Program-made: the position numbers and the translations under genes
The notes under the pieces: model-generated
What the model saw: only the letters and a program-made list of their open reading frames with translations
What the model was told of the DNA's origin: nothing
Databases searched by the model: none
Part shown: positions 2,517 through 29,212 of the stretch, piece after piece
Position numbering within the stretch: position 1 is the stretch's first letter
How the letters are laid out: each line of letters starts with the position of its first letter
Source: Methylococcaceae bacterium
GTDB lineage: Bacteria; Pseudomonadota; Gammaproteobacteria; Methylococcales; Methylomonadaceae
Length of the DNA stretch: 64,000 nucleotides
Reading direction: 5' to 3'
Assembly: GCA_030693065.1 (NCBI GenBank)
Contig: JAUYBL010000013.1
Location: 62,001-126,000 of the forward strand

Positions 2517-4862
2517 ATGACAAACAAGCAAATCGACATTAGGGTGAACAACATGGGGCATTATTTATGGAGGCGCATCGGCTTAGGGGTGGTGGTTTGG
2601 CTGTTGCACTCGTCTTTGGTCAATGCCGGTGACTTGGCATTGTCAGGCATAGATTTTGCCAGTCAGGCAGGCGACAAACTTCAGGTGCAATTAGAAATGA
2701 CCGGTCCGGCTACTGCGCCAAAAATATTCAAAACGGACAATCCGGCACGAATAGCACTGGATTTTCAAGACACCAAAAGTGCCTTACCGAAAAAAATGTA
2801 TTCAGTTAACCAAGGCGCGGTAAACAGTATTTACGTAGTAGAAGCCGCAGGAAGAGTGCGTGTCGTTGTTAATTTGCTGGAAACAACGCCGTTTGAAACT
2901 CAGGTAGATGGCAACAAAGTGCTATTGACACTAACACGTGCCAAGGCTGTGGTTCCTGGCGTTACTAATGCCGCAATAAAGCCATTGCCTCCGGTAGCTA
3001 AGCCTGCACCTGTGGCTCAAATCTCGTCGACTAGTGCTAAATCTGCTAACAATGTCGCTGCTGCATTATTACCGTCACAGGCTATTAGCGGCTTTGATTT
3101 TAAGCGGGGTGAAAAAGGTGAGGGGCGCATATTAGTCAACCTTGCTAACCCCAATACCATTATTAATTCTAAGGAAGAAGGCGGCAAGGTAATTATCAAT
3201 TTCTTAAATACCCAGCTGTCAGCCAATATGTCCAGAAGGCTGGATGTGTCAGAGTTTGCAACACCTGTTAAATTTATCGATACGGTTTCCAGCAACAAGG
3301 AAACTACTATGACGGTTGCTATGCAAAACAACCTATATGACTATTCGGTATTTCAGTCTGATGGACTGCTAACCGTGGAATTTAGGCCCTTAAGCAATGA
3401 AGAAAAAGACGCATTAGACAGATCACGGGTTAAATACACGGGTAACCGCTTGTCATTGAATTTTCAGGAGATTGAAATACGCAGCGTGATAGCAATTCTT
3501 GCTGAATTTACCGGTCAAAACGTGGTGGCCGGCGATGATGTGTCCGGTACCATTACTTTAAAATTAGATGACGTGCCTTGGGATGAAGCGCTGGATTTCA
3601 TCATGATGACTAAGGAGTTAGGTAAATTTGAAAGCGGCAATGTTACTTTGATTTCACCGTTGGATAAGATTAAAGAATACAAAAAGAAACAAGAAGAAAC
3701 CGAAAAAGTGGTTGAACAGTTAGACCCGTTAGTTACTGAATACGTAAAAATTAATTACGCTAAAGCCGAGAGTTTCAGGAACTTATTGAATGGCCGTGAT
3801 ACCGGTGCGTTTGGAAGCTGTAGTTCGACTGGGGGCAGTTCCGGTTCGTCTTCAAGTTCATCAATGAGCGGAGGCTCCTCAAGTTCCAATGCTGGTTCAT
3901 TAGGTGGCGGGCAATCCGGACAAGGCCAAAACTCTGGAGCAGGCAATTCTGGTGGCGGAAACGATCAGATTAGAATGTTGTCGCCAAGAGGCTCGGCAAT
4001 TGTCGATGCCAGAACCAATACTTTAATCGTGCGTGAAACAGCTAAACGTTTAGAAGAAATTAAAAAACTTATTCGCAAGTTAGATGTGCCTGTTCGACAG
4101 GTAATGATCGAGTCAAGAATTGTCATTGCGAGTAGTTCGTTTCTAAAAGAGTTAGGGACTAGATTCGGCGTGGCAGGTAAGAGTGTTAATTTCGGTAACT
4201 CGCCATCAGGATTGGGATCGGTAGGGACGCCAGGAACGGTAGGTAGTGTTAATGGCACCGCGGTATTAAATGATGCTTTAGTTGATTTGGCGGCTTCTAA
4301 TCCATACGGAGCCCTAGGTATGACTCTCGCCAGGGGCGCCGATTATGTGCTTAATCTTGAGTTGTCTGCGTTGCAAGATGAAGGTAAAGGGGAGATAGTT
4401 TCTAACCCAAGGGTAATGACTTCGGATCGCTGTCTGGCGAGCATCAAGCAAGGTTTTGATGTTCCTTACCAAGCTAATAGCGCGAATTCAGGACCAAATA
4501 TTCAATTTAAAGAGGCGTTATTAGAGTTAGAAGTAACACCCCAAATAACGCCTAGTGGAAGTGTTGTGATGGCGTTAAAGATTAATAAAGATGAGCCGGA
4601 TTTTGCTAAAGCTGTTAATGGTACTCCGCCCTTAGTAAAGCGGGAGATTCAAACCAATGTTCATATTATGGATGGTGAGACGGTAGTATTGGGCGGGGTG
4701 TTTGAAGGGACCAAGTCTGAGCTCAATAATAAAGTGCCTTTTTTGGCGGATTTGCCTGGGATAGGTTTCTTATTTACGAAAAAGCATAATGTAGATGAGA
4801 AAACAGAACTACTCATCTTTATTACGCCTAAGATTGTCACCGACAACGCCGCCAGTAATTGA
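2517..4862 (+). CDS. pilQ: Type IV pilus secretin PilQ
   Basis: PilQ forms the outer-membrane pore through which the pilus passes. The start follows GAGG with good spacing; a second ATG lies 12 codons later, directly before the signal peptide (LGVVVWLLHSSLVNA). The order is: two AMIN domains (about 35-130 and 190-290), a secretin N-domain (STN-like, about 315-370), an N1 domain, then the secretin core (about 490-780) ending in the signature VPFLADLPGIGFLF. A Ser/Gly/Asn-rich linker of about 50 residues (432-481) interrupts the N-domain, longer than in many relatives. 781 residues; last gene of the pil operon, followed by a terminator. Confidence 0.96.
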   Translation: MTNKQIDIRVNNMGHYLWRRIGLGVVVWLLHSSLVNAGDLALSGIDFASQAGDKLQVQLEMTGPATAPKIFKTDNPARIALDFQDTKSALPKKMYSVNQGAVNSIYVVEAAGRVRVVVNLLETTPFETQVDGNKVLLTLTRAKAVVPGVTNAAIKPLPPVAKPAPVAQISSTSAKSANNVAAALLPSQAISGFDFKRGEKGEGRILVNLANPNTIINSKEEGGKVIINFLNTQLSANMSRRLDVSEFATPVKFIDTVSSNKETTMTVAMQNNLYDYSVFQSDGLLTVEFRPLSNEEKDALDRSRVKYTGNRLSLNFQEIEIRSVIAILAEFTGQNVVAGDDVSGTITLKLDDVPWDEALDFIMMTKELGKFESGNVTLISPLDKIKEYKKKQEETEKVVEQLDPLVTEYVKINYAKAESFRNLLNGRDTGAFGSCSSTGGSSGSSSSSSMSGGSSSSNAGSLGGGQSGQGQNSGAGNSGGGNDQIRMLSPRGSAIVDARTNTLIVRETAKRLEEIKKLIRKLDVPVRQVMIESRIVIASSSFLKELGTRFGVAGKSVNFGNSPSGLGSVGTPGTVGSVNGTAVLNDALVDLAASNPYGALGMTLARGADYVLNLELSALQDEGKGEIVSNPRVMTSDRCLASIKQGFDVPYQANSANSGPNIQFKEALLELEVTPQITPSGSVVMALKINKDEPDFAKAVNGTPPLVKREIQTNVHIMDGETVVLGGVFEGTKSELNNKVPFLADLPGIGFLFTKKHNVDEKTELLIFITPKIVTDNAASN

Positions 4863-21829: not shown

Positions 21830-23155
21830 ATGTTGAAAAAGAAAAATATATTTATTTTGTCCTTAGGGATAACCTTTGGAGTCATCATCGGCCTCTGCGG
21901 GAGCGTCTTTGCAGAAAAAAATAATGGTGCTGCCGTAACTGACACGGAAGTGCTCCCTTATGAAGACCTTCGCACTTTTACCGAAATTTTTGGTCGTATC
22001 AAGCAAGATTATGTCGAGCCTGTGTCTGACAAAAAACTTTTGGAAGACGCAATTCGAGGCATGCTAAGTGGCTTGGATCCACATTCTGCTTATTTAGCGG
22101 CTGACGAATATCAGGAATTAAAAGAAGGAACTACCGGTCAATTTGGCGGCTTAGGCATAGAAGTTACCATGGAAAACGGCTTTATCAAGGTTGTTTCTCC
22201 TATCGACGACACCCCAGCGCAACGAGCAGGACTTAAAACTGGCGATTTAATTGTCAAGCTTGATGAGCAACCGGTAAAAGGCATGAGCTTAACCGATGCT
22301 GTCAAACTGATGCGTGGTGAGCCTGGGAGCAAAATTGTCTTAACTATCGTTCGCGAAGGTGCAGAAGCCCCGCTTAAAATCACTTTAGTTCGCGACATAA
22401 TAAAAGTTAAAAGCGTAAAAAATCGCTTGTTGGAAAAAGGCTACGGTTACCTACGCATCAGCAGTTTTCAATCTGGTACCGGCGAAGGTCTTAAAGAATC
22501 CCTTGCTGCTCTCAAGAAAGAAAATGGTGGCGACTTAAAAGGTCTAGTGCTGGATTTAAGAAACAACCCCGGTGGTGTTCTGAATGCAGCCGTTGAAGTC
22601 AGCGACGCATTTATTAAAAGCGGCCTGATTGTTTACACCGAAGGCCGTATTGCCAACTCAGAAATGCGCTTCAATGCGGCTCCTGATGATTTATTAAATG
22701 GTGCCCCGATTGTCGTACTTATTAATGCTGGTTCTGCCTCTGCATCGGAAATTGTTGCAGGTGCGTTACAAGACCAAAAACGTGCCGTCATTATGGGTGA
22801 GAAATCGTTTGGTAAAGGTTCAGTGCAAACCATCCTTCCAACAAGCAACGGCGCGGCAGTTAAATTGACGACCGCTCGCTACTTCACGCCTTCAGGACGA
22901 TCTATTCAAGCCCAAGGTATTGAGCCGGATGTAACAGTAGCTCGCGTTAAATTGGAATCCCTTGATAAGGGCAGTGAATTTACACCTATCAAAGAAGCCG
23001 ATTTATCCCGTCATTTACAAAACGGCAATAAAGCTGAAGATGCCAAGAAAAATTCACAAGATGACAAGGATAAAAAAGACGAGCCACTTGAGTTGAAAGA
23101 CTACGCTCTATACGAAGCACTTAATTTGCTAAAAGGTATTAGTATTATCAAGTAG
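21830..23155 (+). CDS. ctpA: Carboxy-terminal processing protease (S41 family)
   Basis: A periplasmic serine/lysine protease with PDZ regulation. 441 residues from ATG 21830, which has GGAG at 21815-21818. An upstream in-frame TTG (21809) is less likely. Order: signal/anchor helix (about 6-27), PDZ domain with GLGIEV and the carboxylate loop (about 100-185), then the protease core with the SASASEIVAGAL serine region (about 302-313) and the catalytic lysine in EKSFGKGSVQT (Lys329). The C-terminus is Lys/Asp-rich and low in complexity before a final helix. It ends the gpmI-envC-ctpA group. Confidence 0.94.
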   Translation: MLKKKNIFILSLGITFGVIIGLCGSVFAEKNNGAAVTDTEVLPYEDLRTFTEIFGRIKQDYVEPVSDKKLLEDAIRGMLSGLDPHSAYLAADEYQELKEGTTGQFGGLGIEVTMENGFIKVVSPIDDTPAQRAGLKTGDLIVKLDEQPVKGMSLTDAVKLMRGEPGSKIVLTIVREGAEAPLKITLVRDIIKVKSVKNRLLEKGYGYLRISSFQSGTGEGLKESLAALKKENGGDLKGLVLDLRNNPGGVLNAAVEVSDAFIKSGLIVYTEGRIANSEMRFNAAPDDLLNGAPIVVLINAGSASASEIVAGALQDQKRAVIMGEKSFGKGSVQTILPTSNGAAVKLTTARYFTPSGRSIQAQGIEPDVTVARVKLESLDKGSEFTPIKEADLSRHLQNGNKAEDAKKNSQDDKDKKDEPLELKDYALYEALNLLKGISIIK

Positions 23156-23165
23156 TTTTCAGATT

Positions 23166-23206
23166 AAAAACCGGAAGTCGGCGCTTGTCGGCTTCCGGTT
23201 TTTTTT
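23166..23206 (+). terminator. Intrinsic terminator after ctpA
   Basis: Stem AAACCGGAAG / CTTCCGGTTT with an inner GTCGGCG..GTCGGC region, followed by eight T residues. It closes the gpmI-envC-ctpA transcript 10 bases after the stop. Confidence 0.9.
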
Positions 23207-23372
23207 GCCTAATGATTAGCAATTGTCATTCGATAATATTTCGACAGTGCTAACGGCTGCTAATAAAGCAGCCTGATAGGTGCGACGGGCACTTGTTGAA
23301 CTATGATCGTAATGGGTTTTCGAGGTATCTTAAGTGTAAGTTCTTATTTACCAGTTGTTGTGCTTACATCCG

Positions 23373-23444
23373 GCTGGACAATAAAAAACCCGCGAAGCCA
23401 AATAACTTGCGGGTTTTTAATGTTCTTTGCACCTCGCTGGATGC
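23373..23444. repeat. Left attachment-type direct repeat
   Basis: A 72-bp copy of the sequence that follows tRNA-Ser at the right end. It contains the same hairpin (AACCCGC..GCGGGTT). The tRNA itself is not repeated here, so the crossover is probably within the post-tRNA terminator region, not within the T-arm. Confidence 0.8.
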
Positions 23445-23512
23445 GAGAAAGACAATAGAACAAATGGCTACACGCCTTTAATATAAAGCGATTAAGTAAT
23501 TTACTTTTCATT

Positions 23513-23534
23513 GTTACCGTCAAAGTTACCGTCA
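23513..23534 (+). repeat. Two tandem GTTACCGTCA sites near the left end
   Basis: GTTACCGTCA occurs at 23513-23522 and 23525-23534, 12 bp apart. The same pair with the same spacing occurs at 27907-27928 beside the integrase start (21 of 22 bases equal). Probable integrase arm-type binding sites. Confidence 0.6.
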
Positions 23535-23535
23535 T

Positions 23536-24306
23536 AACAAACCCACTGCCCCTGTATTTATTAAAAATGCCGTTCTGCCCAGCCTGTTAATAATCATCTC
23601 TTAATTAAATATTTCTTCTGTATTTATTCTGAAATGATCACATAAAACAGGCCGGTAACATCCAGGCTATTAAACACTATTTAATTGCAACCTTGTTGTT
23701 CAGGTTCGACAGATTCCGACACTTTATTCATGGCGTGATTATTTCTTCACTAAATCTCACTACTTTAGTGATTTTGTTCATAAGCGGATTGTTTCAGCAT
23801 TATTCAACACTTTGTTAAAAATTGCCGCCACCCTAGTATTAACCATGGGTGTTACATCGCTATTTTTACCCATTGAAGCCTAGTTGATAGATGGTTGTTA
23901 TTGCGCGAACACCCTTGCCCTGACCTCACCGTTAAATCGCCCTTAAATAAGCCCGTCACGCCACGATAATACTTTTCTTGTGTGTTGGTATGGGTTTGAG
24001 TTTGTAAGCGTAACAATCTGATTTTATTGGCTGATAACGCGCTGCTTTATTACCTACCTTTACCTACTTTAGATTGATTAAAAGCGCCATTGGTGGCGTA
24101 TTTGAAGTGGTTAAAGGCTAACTCGGAGTTATGTTTTGAAGTGCTCACGGCTGGCCTGTATCTCTCGCTAGTGCTGGTTTTGCTTGCTCACAATGATTAT
24201 TCAAATCGAAACTCGGAGTTGCGATTTGGTAACGCTCAATGATTATTCAAAACGGTATTCTTCCTTCCGTTTTACCGCTCATAATCCTAACCTCAAATTG
24301 AGGATG
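23536..24306 (-). other. Non-annotated stretch with chains of tiny minus-strand frames
   Basis: No protein above about 55 residues fits here. On the minus strand there are very short frames joined by four-base ATGA overlaps: 23778-23846 (22 aa), 23728-23781 (17 aa) and 23681-23731 (16 aa) in succession. Another, 23532-23597 (21 aa), runs by ATGA into a frame starting at 23535 that crosses the left repeat. Further short frames are 24247-24282 (11 aa), 24050-24148 (GTG start, 32 aa) and 23852-24016 (TTG start, 54 aa). Direct repeats AACTCGGAGTT (24119-24129, 24209-24219) and CAATGATTATTCAAA (24191, 24237) also occur. It may be a microprotein array, or decayed coding DNA. Confidence 0.35.
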
Positions 24307-24423
24307 TTAATCTTCGTCACCTATGCCAAGGTTCACGCAAGCCGAATGTAAGGACTGGCAAGAATCACTTAGCAGTTCCAGCGCCTTCAATTCTCTAATG
24401 AAATAGGGCGTTCGTATCATCAT
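24307..24423 (-). CDS. Possible small protein of the integrative element, 38 aa
   Basis: Starts with two ATG codons (24423, 24420) and reads MMIRTPYFIRELKALELLSD and on to a C-terminus GIGDED. Amphipathic helix-like composition. It overlaps the preceding small frame by 29 bases in another frame. No family recognised; existence rests only on position and plausible composition. Confidence 0.25.
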   Translation of the reverse strand: MMIRTPYFIRELKALELLSDSCQSLHSACVNLGIGDED

Positions 24424-24517
24424 TGCTTAAGTTATCAATAGCATTCTTGATAAGTATCAGCGCCGGGCTGTCGGTCTCGTTTACGATCTTTTGAAACTCA
24501 ATTATTTTATTGTTCAT
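24395..24517 (-). CDS. Possible small protein of the integrative element, 40 aa
   Basis: Reads MNNKIIEFQKIVNETD, then a helix-like stretch SPALILIKNAIDNLSND. Its ATG overlaps the stop of the frame before it as ATGA (24514-24517), a typical sign of translational coupling. No homologue recognised. Low confidence because of length. Confidence 0.35.
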   Translation of the reverse strand: MNNKIIEFQKIVNETDSPALILIKNAIDNLSNDDTNALFH

Positions 24518-24630
24518 TTTGTCTTCGCTTTAATTTGTTTCTGAAAAAATGCCGCCGTGCTTTGGGCATCTTGTTTGTTGTCTAAATCATGCTTTATAAA
24601 ACCATAGTGGATGGTAAATAATAGGTACAT
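24514..24630 (-). CDS. Possible small protein of the integrative element, 38 aa
   Basis: Reads MYLLFTIHYGFIKHDLDNKQ, followed by a Gln/Lys/Ala-rich tail ending in KAKTK. It is the first small frame after the winged-helix gene, and its start codon lies within the inverted copy of the GTTCAG repeat. Its stop overlaps the next frame by four bases. No family recognised. Confidence 0.3.
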   Translation of the reverse strand: MYLLFTIHYGFIKHDLDNKQDAQSTAAFFQKQIKAKTK

Positions 24631-24771
24631 GCCACATACTGAACACCAAAGGCCAAAATCACGAAAGCTAAGTTATTGATTTATGGTAAATCCTGTTCAT
24701 ATTATGAACACCTGTTCAGTATGCGGCATAAGTCGTTCAGCATACGGCATGAGTCGTTCATATTATGAACA
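24628..24771. repeat. Iteron-like GTTCA repeat cluster with two perfect palindromes
   Basis: Two copies of TGTTCATATTATGAACA-type palindromes (24694-24710; 24755-24771 with one base changed at the end) flank two tandem 21-bp units beginning GTTCAGTATGCGGCATAAG (24714) and GTTCAGCATACGGCATGAG (24735). The GTTCA steps are 19, 21 and 21 bp, about two helix turns. An inverted third copy lies at 24628-24644. It sits immediately downstream of the winged-helix gene and upstream of the small frames: a candidate replication origin or operator. Confidence 0.6.
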
Positions 24772-24777
24772 AGCAAA

Positions 24778-25131
24778 TCAATTTTCAGGTTTCCAGTTTT
24801 GCCAGTCGTTAGTTGCTTTTTGGTCGTTAAATTCACGATACGTAATACGCCACTTTCGGGCCATTTGCTTATAGAAGTGACCTTCGAGCATTAACTTGAT
24901 AAAGCCGTGAGACTCTAATTCTCTTAATGCTTCGTGAGCCTTGCCCCTGCTGCAACCTATACGCTTCTGAGCTTCTGTAACGCCATAGGCGATAGGTTCA
25001 TACATGCGCCAATGTGTTTGCATCAATACGAGCAATTTAACGGCATTGCCGCTTAGGTCAGAATAAGCGGCTGATCTAATCATTTCTACATCCTGGGCTA
25101 TAAACTGCTTTCTCTTGATTGATTTAGCCAT
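24778..25131 (-). CDS. Winged-helix protein of the integrative element
   Basis: 117 residues, basic. The segment GNAVKLLVLMQTHW, then GVTEAQKRIGCSRGKAHEAL and RELESHGFIKL followed by a hairpin (GHFYKQMARKWRITY) reads as a helix-turn-helix with wing, as in replication-control or phage regulatory proteins. No precise family is named. Its start overlaps the Rha-like gene stop by one base. Just beyond its 3' end lies the GTTCA repeat cluster, which it may bind; that link is inference. Confidence 0.7.
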   Translation of the reverse strand: MAKSIKRKQFIAQDVEMIRSAAYSDLSGNAVKLLVLMQTHWRMYEPIAYGVTEAQKRIGCSRGKAHEALRELESHGFIKLMLEGHFYKQMARKWRITYREFNDQKATNDWQNWKPEN

Positions 25132-25853
25132 TAGCCACCTACCAACGTAACCGGGCGCGGATGTTTGGCCTTGTACTTAGCAACAAAATTATCTAACAGC
25201 GTTCTACGGTCTTTTTGAACCGGGTATAAACCAATCAATAACGAATTGTGCGTGCGTATGGCTCCCAATAGCCGCAAGTCATAGCTATCAAGCTCTGATT
25301 CAATTATCGACTCCCAGCGCCCCGTTAAGGCTCGATTACAGAATAGGTGTTCATTACTATAATCTTTTTGATTGCTGGCCTTGCCTTGCAGCTCACGAAT
25401 GAATTTAACAGCGTCAGCCATTTCTCTACCGGTATCGCGTTTGTGTTGCAGCTCAACATTGCGCCCAGGTTCATTAAGAATATGCTTTATTCGCTTAAAC
25501 TCCTGAACCAGTGCTTTTTTAAACTTGCTAACGATCACACTGCTTCGCATGTGGGTAAGTAATAACGTTGCGGCATAGTAATCAATCAGCGCTATTTCCA
25601 TCTCCTGAACACCTCCTTTTGTCTCAAAGGGTCGGATTTCAAATCTAACCCTTCCAACATCTTTCATGTCATTTTGGAACCTACGAGTAAGCTTAATAAC
25701 GGCAGCATGGCTAACACCGCAACTCTCGGCAATAGTCATGCTGGTAGTAGTTAAACTTTGGCCATGAACCTCGACAAGCTTTGGTTCTGTGACTTTTGCA
25801 GGTATCGCGCTTTTTGGCTTTACCGATTGCGAAGGTATCGTTTGAGTATTCAT
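25131..25853 (-). CDS. Rha-family phage-type regulatory protein
   Basis: 240 residues. The N-terminal half shows the Rha pattern: LVEVHGQSLTTTSMTIAES, then HAAVIKLTRRF, a strand FEIRPFETKGG, and the DYYAATLLLTHMRSSVIVSKF helix region. Rha proteins are prophage regulators of lysogenic growth and interfere with infection when IHF is absent. The C-terminal part (about 130-240) is unlike the common ORF6N/KilA tails and is not assigned. It opens the rha-wHTH pair. Confidence 0.75.
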   Translation of the reverse strand: MNTQTIPSQSVKPKSAIPAKVTEPKLVEVHGQSLTTTSMTIAESCGVSHAAVIKLTRRFQNDMKDVGRVRFEIRPFETKGGVQEMEIALIDYYAATLLLTHMRSSVIVSKFKKALVQEFKRIKHILNEPGRNVELQHKRDTGREMADAVKFIRELQGKASNQKDYSNEHLFCNRALTGRWESIIESELDSYDLRLLGAIRTHNSLLIGLYPVQKDRRTLLDNFVAKYKAKHPRPVTLVGG

Positions 25854-25888
25854 TTCTTTATTCCCCTATGGCCGGGGATGTAATCCGC

Positions 25889-25960
25889 TATAATAGCCAT
25901 GACGATTAGGCAAACGGATTGCATGACCGGCACAATCAATTGAGTTGTGTCGGTTTTTTT
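25889..25960 (+). ncRNA. Possible short plus-strand RNA between rha and alpA
   Basis: A perfect TATAAT lies at 25889-25894, and a strong intrinsic terminator at 25926-25960: a 10-bp stem ACCGGCACAA / TTGTGTCGGT, 9-base loop, seven T. No annotated plus-strand gene needs it. A transcript of about 60 bases from near 25901 would be antisense to the alpA-rha intergenic leader. No good -35 was seen, so promoter strength is uncertain. Confidence 0.4.
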
Positions 25961-26177
25961 ATGCGCTTAGTTTTTCAACAAGGGCACGAATATCTGACAC
26001 TCGCCACGCCACCGATCTTTCAGACAATTTAATTGCCGCCGGGTATTCACCTGACTTAATTTTATTCAGGAACGTTGAGCGGCTAACGGGGATGACTTCC
26101 AGGACTTGCGGCAACTTAATAAAGCCGATCTCTGGCAATTGATAGGGTTGTTTTAAAACAGTTTTTTCTTGTGACAT
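25959..26177 (-). CDS. AlpA-family excisionase/regulator
   Basis: A 72-residue MerR-like helix-turn-helix protein. The pattern IGFIKLPQVLEVIPVSRSTF, then LNKIKSGEYPAAIKL and VAWRVSDIRALVEK is the standard AlpA fold (regulators and excisionases of P4-type elements). The start MSQEKTVLKQ at 26177 is preferred; an in-frame ATG ten codons upstream has weaker support. AlpA proteins typically activate the integrase or act in excision. Confidence 0.85.
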   Translation of the reverse strand: MSQEKTVLKQPYQLPEIGFIKLPQVLEVIPVSRSTFLNKIKSGEYPAAIKLSERSVAWRVSDIRALVEKLSA

Positions 26178-26663
26178 GGTGTTGTCTCGATTAAGAGCAC
26201 TCAACACGCTTTATTTATTCCGATAAGTTCAGTAAAATTCAATACAGTTTACTTTTGTAAACAAAAGCATTGCTTTAGTAATAAATTACCGATACATTAG
26301 CAACTGCTTTACGATAACTAACTGTTATGGCTTAGCAGTAATAAAAAAAGCATGTCAAATGCTGACCTAGGAAAAAATATATAAATCACCTGCAACCGTC
26401 GTCGAAAACATTACAGGTGATTTTTTGTGCCCGCTATTTAGTGGGTAATACAATGTAACATACTATATCTAGGCTTTTTTCATCGGTGGCATCTTGTCAT
26501 TTTTGATAAGCTCACAACAAAATGCGAATATCCTGCATTAGAAGAAAAAAAAACAAGCAAATTCAAGGCGTTACCTGTTTTGTATTTGTTTTGTGTTTTT
26601 CAGCATCAAATTAAAAATAATTCAACTTTCCTCGATTTGACCGGCAACAATTGCCGATACTGA
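26178..26663. other. Non-coding region between alpA and the integrase
   Basis: 486 bases, A+T-rich, no credible gene on either strand. It holds a dyad GTTTAC-TTTT-GTAAAC near 26245-26260, a plus-oriented hairpin ATCACCTG..CAGGTGAT with six T (26385-26426), and a small hairpin CGGCAA-CAA-TTGCCG (about 26642-26656) that may end the integrase transcript. It probably contains the alpA promoter. Confidence 0.5.
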
Positions 26664-27878
26664 TCAACCTTGCTTCCTAAACGCTATCACCTGAGCGCCA
26701 GCCTTTAGCCCGTCCAAGTAATCAGCCCAGGCTTGTAGCATCTTTACGCGCTCTGGCAGGTGTTGCGCTCGATTGTAGGCGGCTTTTACTCTATTGCGTT
26801 CACCGTGCGAAAGCTGGCGCTCGATCATATCCGAATGAAAACCTTGTTCGTGCAACATCGTTGAGGCGGTAGTTCTAAATCCGTGCGCGGTGTGCTGTCC
26901 TTGGTAGCCCATGCGCCGAATAGCCGCCCCGATAGACTCACGGCTAATATGCGGCTCATTGCCTGCCTTGCCTTGGTTGCTGGCGAATACATAGCGGCTT
27001 GAGCCTGTTAGCGGGTAAATATCCCTAAGCAATGCTATTGCCTGTTTACTAAGCGGGACTATGTGCACTTCCTTCATTTTCATTTTATCGGCGGCGATAC
27101 GCCATTCAGCGGCGTCAAGGTCGAATTCTGACCACTCAGCCGCCGCAAGGTTGGCAGGTCTAGCGAATATTAAGGGTTGAAGCTGTAACGCGGTTCTAAC
27201 AACAAAATTACCGGTATAGGCATCAATATCACGTAGCAGCTGTGCTAGTGGCTTGGCTTCTGTTATGGCGGGAAAGTGGCCTTTATTTGGTGAAGGTAAA
27301 GCACCACGCAAATCGGCGGTAACATCTCGTTCAGCGCGTCCAGTGGCGATACCGTAGCGGATAGCCTGCCCTATAAATTGCTTAGTTCTGGCGGCGGTTT
27401 CCAGTGACCCACGGTCAACAATGCGGCGCAAGGTAATCAACACTTCAACGGCGGATAAGTCTTTAAGTGGTCTGTTACCAATCCAGGGAAAAACATCACG
27501 TTCAAAACATTGTTGAACATGTGCGGCATGGCTGGCGCTCCATTTGTTACGCTTGGCTTCGATAAATTCCAAAGACACGGCGGCAAGGGTGTTTTCTATA
27601 CTGCCTGCTTTCTCGATCTTGCGAGTTAAGCCAGGGTCTATGCCGTCTGCAATTTGCTTTCGTGCAGCGTCCCTTTTTTCTCTGGCCTGCTTTAAGGTGG
27701 TATCGGGATAAGTGCCCATCGATAATGTTTTACGGTTACCGTCAAATCGATAGTCAAATCGCCACCACTTACCGCCATTGACGGTAACAAGTAGATATAA
27801 GCCTTTTTCATCTGATAGCTTGTAAGACTTACCATCTCTAGGTTTAGCGTTCTTTATTGCGGTATCTGATAGGGGCAT
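26664..27878 (-). CDS. P4-type tyrosine integrase (DUF4102 N-terminus)
   Basis: 404 residues. The N-terminus MPLSDTAIKNAKPRDGKSYK is the arm-binding DUF4102 domain, with GLYLLVTVNGGKWWRFDYRF and TLSMGTYPD following. The catalytic domain shows the Arg in LIFARPANLAAAEW, HTAHGFRTTAST with the H-x-x-R pair, the His in LSHGERNR, and the tyrosine in VKAAYNRAQH. All catalytic residues are therefore present. The start at 27878 fits the family; the frame runs 17 codons further upstream through repeated TGACGGTAAC sites and codes for a repetitive MTVTLTVT stretch that is unlikely to be protein. It is adjacent to tRNA-Ser. Confidence 0.93.
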   Translation of the reverse strand: MPLSDTAIKNAKPRDGKSYKLSDEKGLYLLVTVNGGKWWRFDYRFDGNRKTLSMGTYPDTTLKQAREKRDAARKQIADGIDPGLTRKIEKAGSIENTLAAVSLEFIEAKRNKWSASHAAHVQQCFERDVFPWIGNRPLKDLSAVEVLITLRRIVDRGSLETAARTKQFIGQAIRYGIATGRAERDVTADLRGALPSPNKGHFPAITEAKPLAQLLRDIDAYTGNFVVRTALQLQPLIFARPANLAAAEWSEFDLDAAEWRIAADKMKMKEVHIVPLSKQAIALLRDIYPLTGSSRYVFASNQGKAGNEPHISRESIGAAIRRMGYQGQHTAHGFRTTASTMLHEQGFHSDMIERQLSHGERNRVKAAYNRAQHLPERVKMLQAWADYLDGLKAGAQVIAFRKQG

Positions 27879-27928
27879 GACGGTAACACCTCGTGACGGT
27901 AGCTCTGTTACTGTCAAAGTTACCGTCA
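27735..27928. repeat. Cluster of GTTACCGTCA / TGACGGTAAC sites at the integrase end
   Basis: Six copies: 27735-27744 and 27779-27788 inside int, 27878-27887 over its start codon, 27894-27903 (one mismatch), 27907-27916 (one mismatch) and 27919-27928. Together with the pair at 23513-23534 this gives eight copies at the two ends. The arrangement suggests integrase arm-type sites, and autoregulation of int. Confidence 0.6.
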
Positions 27929-27964
27929 ATCATAGCGGTATGTCAATGAATCTTATTGCACTAT

Positions 27965-28036
27965 GCTGGACAATAAAAAACCCGCTAAGCTAGATAACTT
28001 GCGGGTTTTAGATGTTCTTTGCACCTCGCTGGATGC
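27965..28036 (-). repeat. Right attachment-type repeat carrying the tRNA-Ser terminator
   Basis: The 72-bp partner of the left repeat. Read on the minus strand, it starts 6 bases after the tRNA-Ser CCA end and contains a hairpin AAAACCCGC..GCGGGTTTT followed by T residues (27974-28010), a probable terminator for the tRNA. Confidence 0.8.
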
Positions 28037-28041
28037 TTAAT

Positions 28042-28129
28042 TGGCGGAGAGAAAGGGATTCGAACCCTTGATACGTTGCCGTATACACACTTTCCAGGCG
28101 TGCGCCTTCAGCCGCTCGGCCACCTCTCC
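28042..28129 (-). tRNA. tRNA-Ser(GGA)
   Basis: Class II tRNA of 88 bases including an encoded CCA. The acceptor stem is GGAGAGG / TCTCTCC with discriminator G. The anticodon loop CTGGAAA gives anticodon GGA (codons UCC/UCU). The long variable arm is present (GTATACGGCAACGTATC) and the T-loop is GGTTCGAATCC. It is the landmark for the integrated element beside it. Confidence 0.97.
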
Positions 28130-28201
28130 GTAATCCTCTCAATACCTTGAGAGGGCGCGTAGGATAATCGATTTCGGCTTTGGTTGCAAACCGGCGGCCT
28201 G

Positions 28202-29212
28202 TCACGCGGTCGGCAACGGTAGGCGTTCCATTAGGTAACACAAACAATCTTGGCGGATTATGCGTTCCTCCAAGGTCAGCATTGCCGGGATTACATTGCA
28301 GCGTGTCAGCAGTTGGCCGTTGCGTACTTCAAAAAAGCGTTCAGCGACACAGTCACCAGCTTCGTCAAGCACTTGTAGCGGCACAGTGGTTTGCTTAGTT
28401 GTGCCTAAGTTCGTGCCGGTTGAAATTTCTGTGAAATTAAGATGGTCAATGGCGGGTTCCAGAATAAGGTCGACATCGCCAGCACCGAATTGAAAGCTGA
28501 TATGTTCGGGGATTTTGACCAGTCCGATGGTGTGGAATAAATCAAGATCGTGCGCGGCTAGTGGCTGAATGGGAAAGTTGGTCAAGTGTAGGCAGGCATC
28601 CACTAGATCGACGGCGTGTGCGATACCTTCTGAGTTACCAGGCTTGCTGCATTCAATTGCAATAGCGGGGCATAGTTTGGCGAATGCTGCGGATTGCGTA
28701 CCTTTGGGCCGAATGAAGTACACCGCGATGCGCGAAAACAAGGTCGCTAGATGCAGAAAGCGCTGGTCGAGCGTGTTGACGCAAGCGTAATTCGGATTAA
28801 GGCCGGTGTTGTTATGAATGTCGATGCTGGCAAATACGCCGCGCTGCTGCATTTCGTTGATTACCGCATTGGCCATGGCCTGTTGTTCCGGCGCATCGTG
28901 TTCGGTGCCGGGCCAGATGCGGTTGAAATCAGCTTGGCCGTCCAATCTGCGCAAGCCTTCGCGAGCCGCGGTGACGTTGCCGACAAAAATGGATAAGGCG
29001 CGCGGCAGTTCCCTTTTGGCATATTTTTTTAGTACTTGCTGAATGGCTTTCAGGCCGGTGTCTTCATTGCCATGCAACAAGATGGCTACAAACAGAGCGG
29101 GCTGCTGTCGTCCGGCTAAGTGCATCAGTGTGGGTTGCGGCAAGAGGCTGTGCAGATGCCGGGCGTCAATATCCAAAAAGCCGTCAGGGAAATGATCGAT
29201 TACTTTCAGCAT
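28202..29212 (-). CDS. AstE/AspA-type zinc carboxypeptidase-fold hydrolase (M14-like)
   Basis: 336 residues. Zinc ligands fit the succinylglutamate desuccinylase/aspartoacylase branch: HGNE at 47-50 (His47, Glu50), substrate arginine in FNRIW (Arg98) and DIHNN with His133. The enzyme should cleave an amide bond next to a free carboxylate of a small molecule or peptide. The start at 29212 has GGA 8 bases before it; the longer frame upstream runs into the neighbour. It follows the GCS2-like gene by 13 bases and probably forms a two-gene unit. Substrate is unknown. Confidence 0.8.
   Translation of the reverse strand: MLKVIDHFPDGFLDIDARHLHSLLPQPTLMHLAGRQQPALFVAILLHGNEDTGLKAIQQVLKKYAKRELPRALSIFVGNVTAAREGLRRLDGQADFNRIWPGTEHDAPEQQAMANAVINEMQQRGVFASIDIHNNTGLNPNYACVNTLDQRFLHLATLFSRIAVYFIRPKGTQSAAFAKLCPAIAIECSKPGNSEGIAHAVDLVDACLHLTNFPIQPLAAHDLDLFHTIGLVKIPEHISFQFGAGDVDLILEPAIDHLNFTEISTGTNLGTTKQTTVPLQVLDEAGDCVAERFFEVRNGQLLTRCNVIPAMLTLEERIIRQDCLCYLMERLPLPTA

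What the first reader, a model, noticed from the sequence alone, without database searches (positions are those of the whole stretch)
23373..28036. A minimal integrative element with duplicated post-tRNA terminator as attachment site
Two 72-bp direct repeats (67 of 72 equal) bound a 4.6-kb segment carrying integrase, AlpA, Rha and a winged-helix protein but no packaging, mating or cargo gene. The repeat lies just outside tRNA-Ser(GGA) and contains the tRNA terminator hairpin, instead of the usual overlap with the tRNA 3' end. Such a small element with a complete integrase may be a satellite that depends on a helper.
Basis: partly seen in the sequence, partly recalled or inferred. Interest (0 to 1): 0.68.

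Follow-up and report, generated by a model that had tools for sequence, protein, structure and literature searches.

The report
Small tRNA island with damaged end
A 4.6-kb mobile DNA element sits at a serine tRNA gene of a methane-oxidising bacterium; its odd end repeat turns out to be a worn version of an attachment site already known for this integrase family, so it is a compact new member of a known kind rather than something new.

Summary
In detail: two 72-bp copies (67/72) bound a 4.6-kb segment with int, alpA, rha and a winged-helix gene beside tRNA-Ser(GGA). After a 12-bp gap the distal copy keeps exactly 7 bp of the tRNA (CTTTCTC, T/acceptor-stem junction), so the duplication does reach into the tRNA; in 12 of 19 relatives the repeat visibly starts inside it. 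Of 28 distal copies with an intact 7-bp core, 23 carry a deletion starting at the same base, the window's among them. Such damaged tRNA fragments are published for P4-type islands (Islander; CP4-57, CP4So). In four genomes of one genus the trailer and terminator on the tRNA side are the element's and the host's old ones lie at the far end, which argues against the terminator as crossover site. In this genome the terminator type follows six tRNA/tmRNA genes and none of 21 other unit ends examined. int-alpA-rha-WH recurs at tRNA-Leu(CAA) in a congener. Phased repeats directly after the winged-helix gene, conserved in eight elements, hint at a mini-replicon. Satellite status is unproven: no primase or packaging gene and no helper was found.

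The parts
28042..28129 (-). tRNA-Ser(GGA), target gene; its 3' part is taken to be supplied by the element
   Evidence: ARAGORN; Rfam (28045-28129)
28049..28055 (-). tRNA-side copy of the 7-bp core (CTTTCTC on the minus strand), T/acceptor-stem junction
   Evidence: alignment; survey
28037..28048 (-). 12 bp (last 7 bp of the tRNA incl. CCA plus 5 bp) missing from the distal copy
   Evidence: alignment
27965..28036 (-). tRNA-side 72-bp repeat: small hairpin plus intrinsic terminator, read as element-borne tRNA trailer
   Evidence: family comparison
27906..27928 (.). arm-type integrase sites, int side (TGTTACTGTCAAAGTTACCGTCA)
   Evidence: called arm sites by position and repetition, not tested
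26664..27878 (-). int: P4-type tyrosine integrase (404 aa from the ATG at 27878)
   Evidence: Pfam PF13356, PF22022, PF00589; phrog_1
25959..26207 (-). alpA-like excisionase/regulator
   Evidence: PF05930; phrog_2790
25131..25853 (-). Rha-family regulator
   Evidence: PF09669; phrog_2657; distant phage homologues
24778..25131 (-). 117-aa winged-helix protein, possible replication initiator
   Evidence: phrog_186 weak; HTH_IclR below its cut-off; fold
24640..24777 (-). iteron-like array: four TGAAC in direct repeat, 21/21/19 bp apart, plus an inverted GTTCA
   Evidence: 8 elements aligned
23452..24639 (.). mostly non-coding left part, similar in patches (69-80%) to the sister element of G002
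23512..23534 (.). arm-type integrase sites, distal side (TGTTACCGTCAAAGTTACCGTCA)
23445..23451 (-). distal copy of the 7-bp core
23373..23444 (-). distal 72-bp repeat: read as the displaced former tRNA trailer and terminator

Best explanation
This is a small genomic island of the P4-integrase kind, inserted at the T-stem/acceptor-stem junction of tRNA-Ser(GGA). The integrase (with AlpA as likely excisionase) recombines a 7-bp core; the element supplies a fresh tRNA 3' end, trailer and terminator, and pushes the old trailer and terminator to the far end, which makes the 72-bp repeat. The displaced tRNA fragment has lost 12 bp starting directly beside the core, a known kind of damage, so exact excision would leave tRNA-Ser(GGA) without its end. 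The winged-helix gene and the repeats behind it may be the replication part. Shown: repeat, core, deletion, gene content, kinship. Inferred: crossover in the core, excision outcome, replication role.
For: Repeat and genes. 13 of 13 loci with int 63-90% alike whose tRNA is in view sit at tRNA-Ser(GGA). In 12 of 19 relatives with a reported repeat it begins 5-23 bp inside the tRNA. 28 distal copies with 7 of 7 core bases: 23 have a deletion beginning at the 7th base from the tRNA end (17 of 1 bp, 1 of 2, 3 of 4, 1 of 12 = window, 1 of 16), 4 none in the tRNA, 1 other. E. coli CP4-57 shows the same 1-bp lesion. [quoted passage not shown] the junction J of T and acceptor stems is a named crossover subsite. 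PMC10107115, passages: P4-integrase prophages at ssrA leave such deletions on excision. In genus g12, 7 of 9 genomes with a distal tRNA-Leu(CAA) copy read have there the trailer type of empty sites, and in 4 of these 7 the tRNA-side trailer differs. Sister element with Rha 51-52% and WH 93% alike at tRNA-Leu(CAA) in G002, 116-bp repeat at 95%.
Against: No strain with an empty site or circular form of this element was available. In 7 of 19 relatives, counting rows L152, L156, L162, L206, L210, L212 and L214, the reported repeat starts outside the tRNA as in the window. The window's gap also removes CCA and 5 bp beyond, more than in most; it may have grown later. Four of the 28 distal copies are intact, and in the integrase tree the four rows labelled intact do not form one clade. 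In two genomes (G122, G173) the distal trailer is of the element's own type, so the exchange cannot be placed there. PMC10107115 (passages) thinks the ssrA lesions were probably acquired independently after integration. The WH model is poor (pLDDT 68, 3 sequences), no PDB match reached E 0.001, and regulator folds score nearly as well.
Confidence: 0.8

Rival explanations
1. One reading: the crossover lies in the post-tRNA trailer/terminator, outside the tRNA, so that the 72-bp repeat itself is the attachment core and the 7 bp beyond the gap are chance or relic.
For: In the window, L206 and L210 the uninterrupted repeat starts 6-10 bp after the tRNA; in L206 it is 93 of 93 identical. In G122 and G173 both sides share one trailer type.
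Against: In four tRNA-Leu(CAA) elements of one genus the trailers on tRNA side and distal side differ, with the type of empty sites on the distal side, which puts the crossover left of the trailer there. The distal 7 bp match the element's own host tRNA in Ser, Cys, Leu and ssrA elements.
Confidence: 0.12
2. The segment is a phage satellite that is excised, replicated and packaged with the help of a phage (PICI- or PICMI-like).
For: Small size, int plus alpA, Rha-family regulator with distant phage homologues, initiator-like gene with phased repeats. PICMIs need int, alpA and a primase gene (PMC10803314, passages).
Against: No primase, terminase or capsid-remodelling gene among the four ORFs. 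No close relative in IMG/VR, none of WH in phage records. Larger cousins carry other cargo, one by eye a restriction-modification pair.
Confidence: 0.2
3. The segment is a decayed, immobile remnant of a larger island that has lost its cargo and its working end.
For: Damaged distal site, 1.2 kb of mostly non-coding DNA, and a 69-aa ORF of the sister element that reads as broken here (by eye).
Against: All four genes are open and int matches all three Pfam domains. Small relatives exist at other tRNA genes: the same order at 6.4 kb (G002), and int-alpA-another gene-WH at 4.7 kb (G109).
Confidence: 0.35

Closest known systems
P4-integrase tRNA/tmRNA islands with a damaged displaced fragment (Islander junction class; CP4-57, CP4So, VPI)
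   Same: Integrase type, int next to the tRNA/tmRNA gene, AlpA (in CP4-57), deletion beginning 3 bp upstream of the discriminator in the displaced copy
   Different: Targets tRNA-Ser(GGA); deletion is 12 bp; repeat continues through trailer and terminator; element only 4.6 kb
Sister element at tRNA-Leu(CAA) of G002 (L148)
   Same: int-alpA-rha-WH-phased repeats, trailer/terminator repeat
   Different: Different integrase (47-50% aa), 6.4 kb, 1-bp deletion, extra genes
PICMI satellites of Vibrionaceae (passages read)
   Same: Minimal gene set with int and alpA
   Different: No primase here, site not next to fis, no helper known
tRNA-dependent lysogeny (PMC10865867, abstract read)
   Same: Host comes to depend on tRNA sequence brought by the element
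   Different: There a whole phage tRNA gene replaces a disrupted one; here only the 3' end is supplied

Membership tests
P4-type tRNA island, junction (J) site | Tyrosine integrase with P4-type arm domain | tested here: met
   PF13356, PF22022, PF00589
P4-type tRNA island, junction (J) site | Intact tRNA gene on the int side, displaced 3' fragment at the far end in the same orientation | tested here: met
   7-bp core plus trailer in the distal copy; the fragment is damaged
P4-type tRNA island, junction (J) site | Crossover at the T/acceptor-stem junction | tested here: inconclusive
   Core position in 28 copies fits; no excision experiment
P4-type tRNA island, junction (J) site | Excision and circular form | not testable with these tools
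   needs DNA or reads
PICMI satellite | Primase gene (DUF3987/DUF5906 type) | tested here: not met
   none among the four ORFs
PICMI satellite | Site next to fis | tested here: not met
   site is tRNA-Ser(GGA)
PICI / P4 satellite | Packaging or capsid-redirecting genes | tested here: not met
   no such family among the four ORFs
PICI / P4 satellite | Mobilisation by a helper phage | not testable with these tools
   needs cultures
Iteron replicon | Initiator protein next to phased direct repeats | tested here: inconclusive
   phased repeats conserved; WH as initiator weak

The most novel reading that the evidence does not exclude
Islands of this family turn a tRNA gene into a hostage: soon after insertion the displaced tRNA end is cut at the integrase's own cleavage point, so any later excision leaves a broken, often single-copy tRNA gene. 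This would be addiction without a toxin, and would extend the published ssrA switch to tRNA-Leu, -Ser and -Cys genes, with a mini-replicon chassis that moves between tRNA targets.
Probability: 0.2. Interest if true: 0.6.

Novelty: new member of a known kind. Interest (0 to 1): 0.34.

Why it matters
It explains an apparently odd attachment site as a worn copy of a known one, and gives a rule for finding such islands: look 7 bp into the tRNA beyond a small gap, and expect the terminator in the repeat. The survey also suggests that damage at the displaced end, counted for 148 of 3919 islands by Islander, is common in this bacterial family (23 of 28 copies with an intact core; the two counts were made by different rules), which makes a link between damage and island stability testable in methanotrophs that can be cultured.

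Tried and rejected
Crossover in the trailer or terminator: set aside for four tRNA-Leu(CAA) elements because their trailers were exchanged; kept as a rival for the window. Deletion carried by attP with crossover to its right: considered, set aside because published excision of CP4-57 and CP4So leaves the lesion in the host gene. ARAGORN on joined host-left and distal-right sequences as a test of tRNA loss: it still called a tRNA or tmRNA in 38 of 38 cases, damaged ones included, so it does not discriminate. Rfam scan of 23100-28400: only the tRNA. Defence-gene scan of alpA, rha and WH: nothing. Integrase tree of 32 rows: intact and damaged copies do not separate into two clades. Clean empty site in congeners: none; G001 has other DNA after the tRNA, G002 a ctp-tRNA gap of about 0.7 kb without the repeat, G003 a short contig with other DNA. 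Viral contigs: no close relatives.
Full report
What was seen. The nearest integrase relatives in named records are Methylobacter, Methylovulum, Methylomonas, Methyloglobulus and other Methylococcales. The integrase probably starts at the ATG at 27878 (404 aa), not at the TTG of the mechanical ORF. Arm-type repeats TTAC(C/T)GTCA occur at 23514, 23526, 27736, 27908 and 27920, inverted copies at 27779 and 27878, and once more in 64 kb, at 3069. Both ends therefore seem to belong to one element.

The terminator part is a dispersed module. A search of the same genome with the tRNA-side repeat plus tRNA gave 11 matches: the two copies, a tRNA-Ser(GCT), and 8 matches at 7 places that hit the terminator part. 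These places lie behind tRNA-Leu(CAG), tRNA-Leu(GAG), tRNA-Leu(CAA), tRNA-Cys and ssrA, at a distal site 12.6 kb from tRNA-Leu(CAG), and at one place (C8) without a tRNA. With the window that makes six genes. In 21 other tRNA unit ends of this genome a pattern for the module matched none, and it matched 5 of the 5 other module genes; the window's copy was not put through that pattern. Three further tRNA genes (C4:26906, C26:79019, C32:2708) were not read. A whole P4-type int follows two of the six (Ser, Leu-CAG), a broken one Leu-GAG; for ssrA and Cys no int was found nearby, though ssrA has arm-like repeats by eye; Leu-CAA lies near a contig end.

Relatives show where the repeat begins. Of the 14 loci with the closest integrases that I fetched, 13 have the tRNA in view and 13 of 13 are at tRNA-Ser(GGA); L149 starts inside int. 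More distant integrases (40-56%) sit mostly at Leu, Cys, Arg, Pro, Phe, Ser and ssrA genes. Among 19 relatives with a tRNA and a reported repeat, it starts 5-23 bp inside the tRNA in 12 (L009, L148, L150, L157, L163, L202, L205, L207, L213, L215, L217, L219) and outside in 7 (L152, L156, L162, L206, L210, L212, L214); in L202 and L205 it stops before any terminator. In the window, aligned across the gap, the distal copy keeps CTTTCTC, lacks 12 bp, then has the 72 bp.

The deletion is regular. 87 loci were given to the survey; 79 have a tRNA/tmRNA gene followed by int, one of them the E. coli control. They gave 38 candidate distal copies at E <= 0.001. 28 keep all 7 bases of the core (positions 7-13 before the tRNA's last base). 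Of these, 23 have a deletion that begins at the next base: 17 of 1 bp, 1 of 2, 3 of 4, 1 of 12 (window), 1 of 16; 4 have none in the tRNA part (L202, L205, L340, one of two in L349); 1 (L162) is changed otherwise. The 10 rows without a full core (L152, L163, L172, L206, L321, L322, L324, two of L347, L354) were left out of the count; L354 also lacks one base there, L163 and L172 have gaps that start one base to the left, L206 a 14-bp gap in another alignment, and the rest are doubtful. A looser search added L212 and L344, both with a gap at that base, and L201 without one. In 7 of the 28 the match to the left ends after exactly 7 bp; shorter matches could not enter this set by construction. 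The 28 rows are not all independent events: 17 are at tRNA-Leu(CAA) or (GAG), and some lie in tandem.

Which side brought what. In genus g12, 30 tRNA-Leu(CAA) loci from 37 genomes were read. Six without int (L249-L251, L254, L256, L257) share one trailer type with small variants. Distal copies were read from nine genomes: seven (G181, G109, G167, G182, G168, G150, G095) have that type or a near variant, and in four of these (G181, G109, G167, G182) the trailer on the tRNA side is quite different; G122 and G173 have on both sides one type of their own; an inner copy in G181 has a third type. The four differing cases say that the tRNA-side trailer and terminator are the element's, the distal one is the old host's, and the exchange lies left of the trailer. 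Of four further loci without int, L242 resembles the common type and L268-L270 do not; I take the latter for relics. In tRNA-Ser(GGA) of the window's own genus no congener has the 72-bp sequence.

What is known. [quoted passage not shown] Table 1 of PMC10107115 (passages) lists ssrA islands whose excision leaves 1-, 4- or 5-base deletions at that point (6 of these 9 with P4 integrase) and four without; the paper reports that the 1-base form abolishes tmRNA function, and thinks the lesions were probably acquired independently after integration. PMC5148205 (passages) shows the excised product in Shewanella. In the K-12 sequence CP4-57 shows the same 1-bp gap, while the two tRNA ends at thrW beside CP4-6 are alike. 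Williams 2003 is not held. The window site therefore looks like a worn member of this class. For tRNA targets I found no paper that treats the consequence of excision as a rule; searches, seen as listings apart from the papers named.

What the element may do. The order int-alpA-rha-WH recurs in G002 at tRNA-Leu(CAA) (WH 93%, Rha 51%, int 47%, 6.4 kb); int-alpA-WH with another gene between alpA and WH recurs in elements from 4.7 kb up. WH is found in 28 of 151 family genomes, Rha in 14 of 151, int in 121 of 151, own genome included. Of nine elements with WH whose next stretch I read, eight have directly after the WH stop codon four TGAAC repeats 21, 21 and 19 bp apart and an inverted GTTCA; in the ninth, L152, matching sequence follows about 0.5 kb later. 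Apart from G002, alignments with the window end shortly after this array. Place and phasing suggest an origin, or an operator array, for WH. The predicted fold (pLDDT 68) has RepA-type plasmid initiators at the top of the PDB list, but none at E <= 0.001, and MarR- and CodY-type regulators follow closely. I give a replication role about even odds.

Verdict. A compact new member of a known kind. Exact excision of the present form would leave tRNA-Ser(GGA) without acceptor-end bases and CCA; a second GGA gene was not seen. Whether that makes the element locked, addictive or just old cannot be told from sequence.

Noticed in passing
L009 (G000:C34:142000-161000), about 145.0-157.7 kb of C34: A second island of the same class in this genome, 12.6 kb at tRNA-Leu(CAG), with int (48-50% aa), AlpA and a long ORF that by eye looks like a tail tape measure; 1-bp gap in its distal copy.
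   Followed up: partly
L349, L217, L358: Apparent tandem islands at one tRNA-Leu gene with two distal copies; in L349 one copy has the 1-bp gap and the other, with nearly the same trailer, is intact.
   Followed up: partly
L229, L230, L234, L236, L221 (own genome): Short direct repeats resembling arm-type integrase sites directly behind tRNA-Thr(TGT), Val(GAC), Asn, Arg(CCG) and Lys(CTT), without the terminator module: perhaps relics of other islands.
   Followed up: no
window 28021-28036 and trailers: A small hairpin of changing sequence (GCATC/GGTGC, CTACTC/GAGTAG, TTGATT/AATCAA) lies between the tRNA end and the terminator in many trailers; its role is unknown.
   Followed up: no
L158, L159, L164, L165: Close integrases (67-79%) at tRNA-Ser(GGA) whose trailer lacks the usual terminator hairpin although the distance to the int side is about the same.
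   Followed up: no
L155 (G046): A larger relative at tRNA-Ser(GGA) carries two long ORFs that by eye look like a restriction-modification pair, split by transposase-like ORFs.
   Followed up: no
L047 and L055 (G001, G004): Other DNA, by eye type I restriction genes (hsdM-like), directly behind tRNA-Ser(GGA): the site may be a hot spot for defence genes.
   Followed up: no
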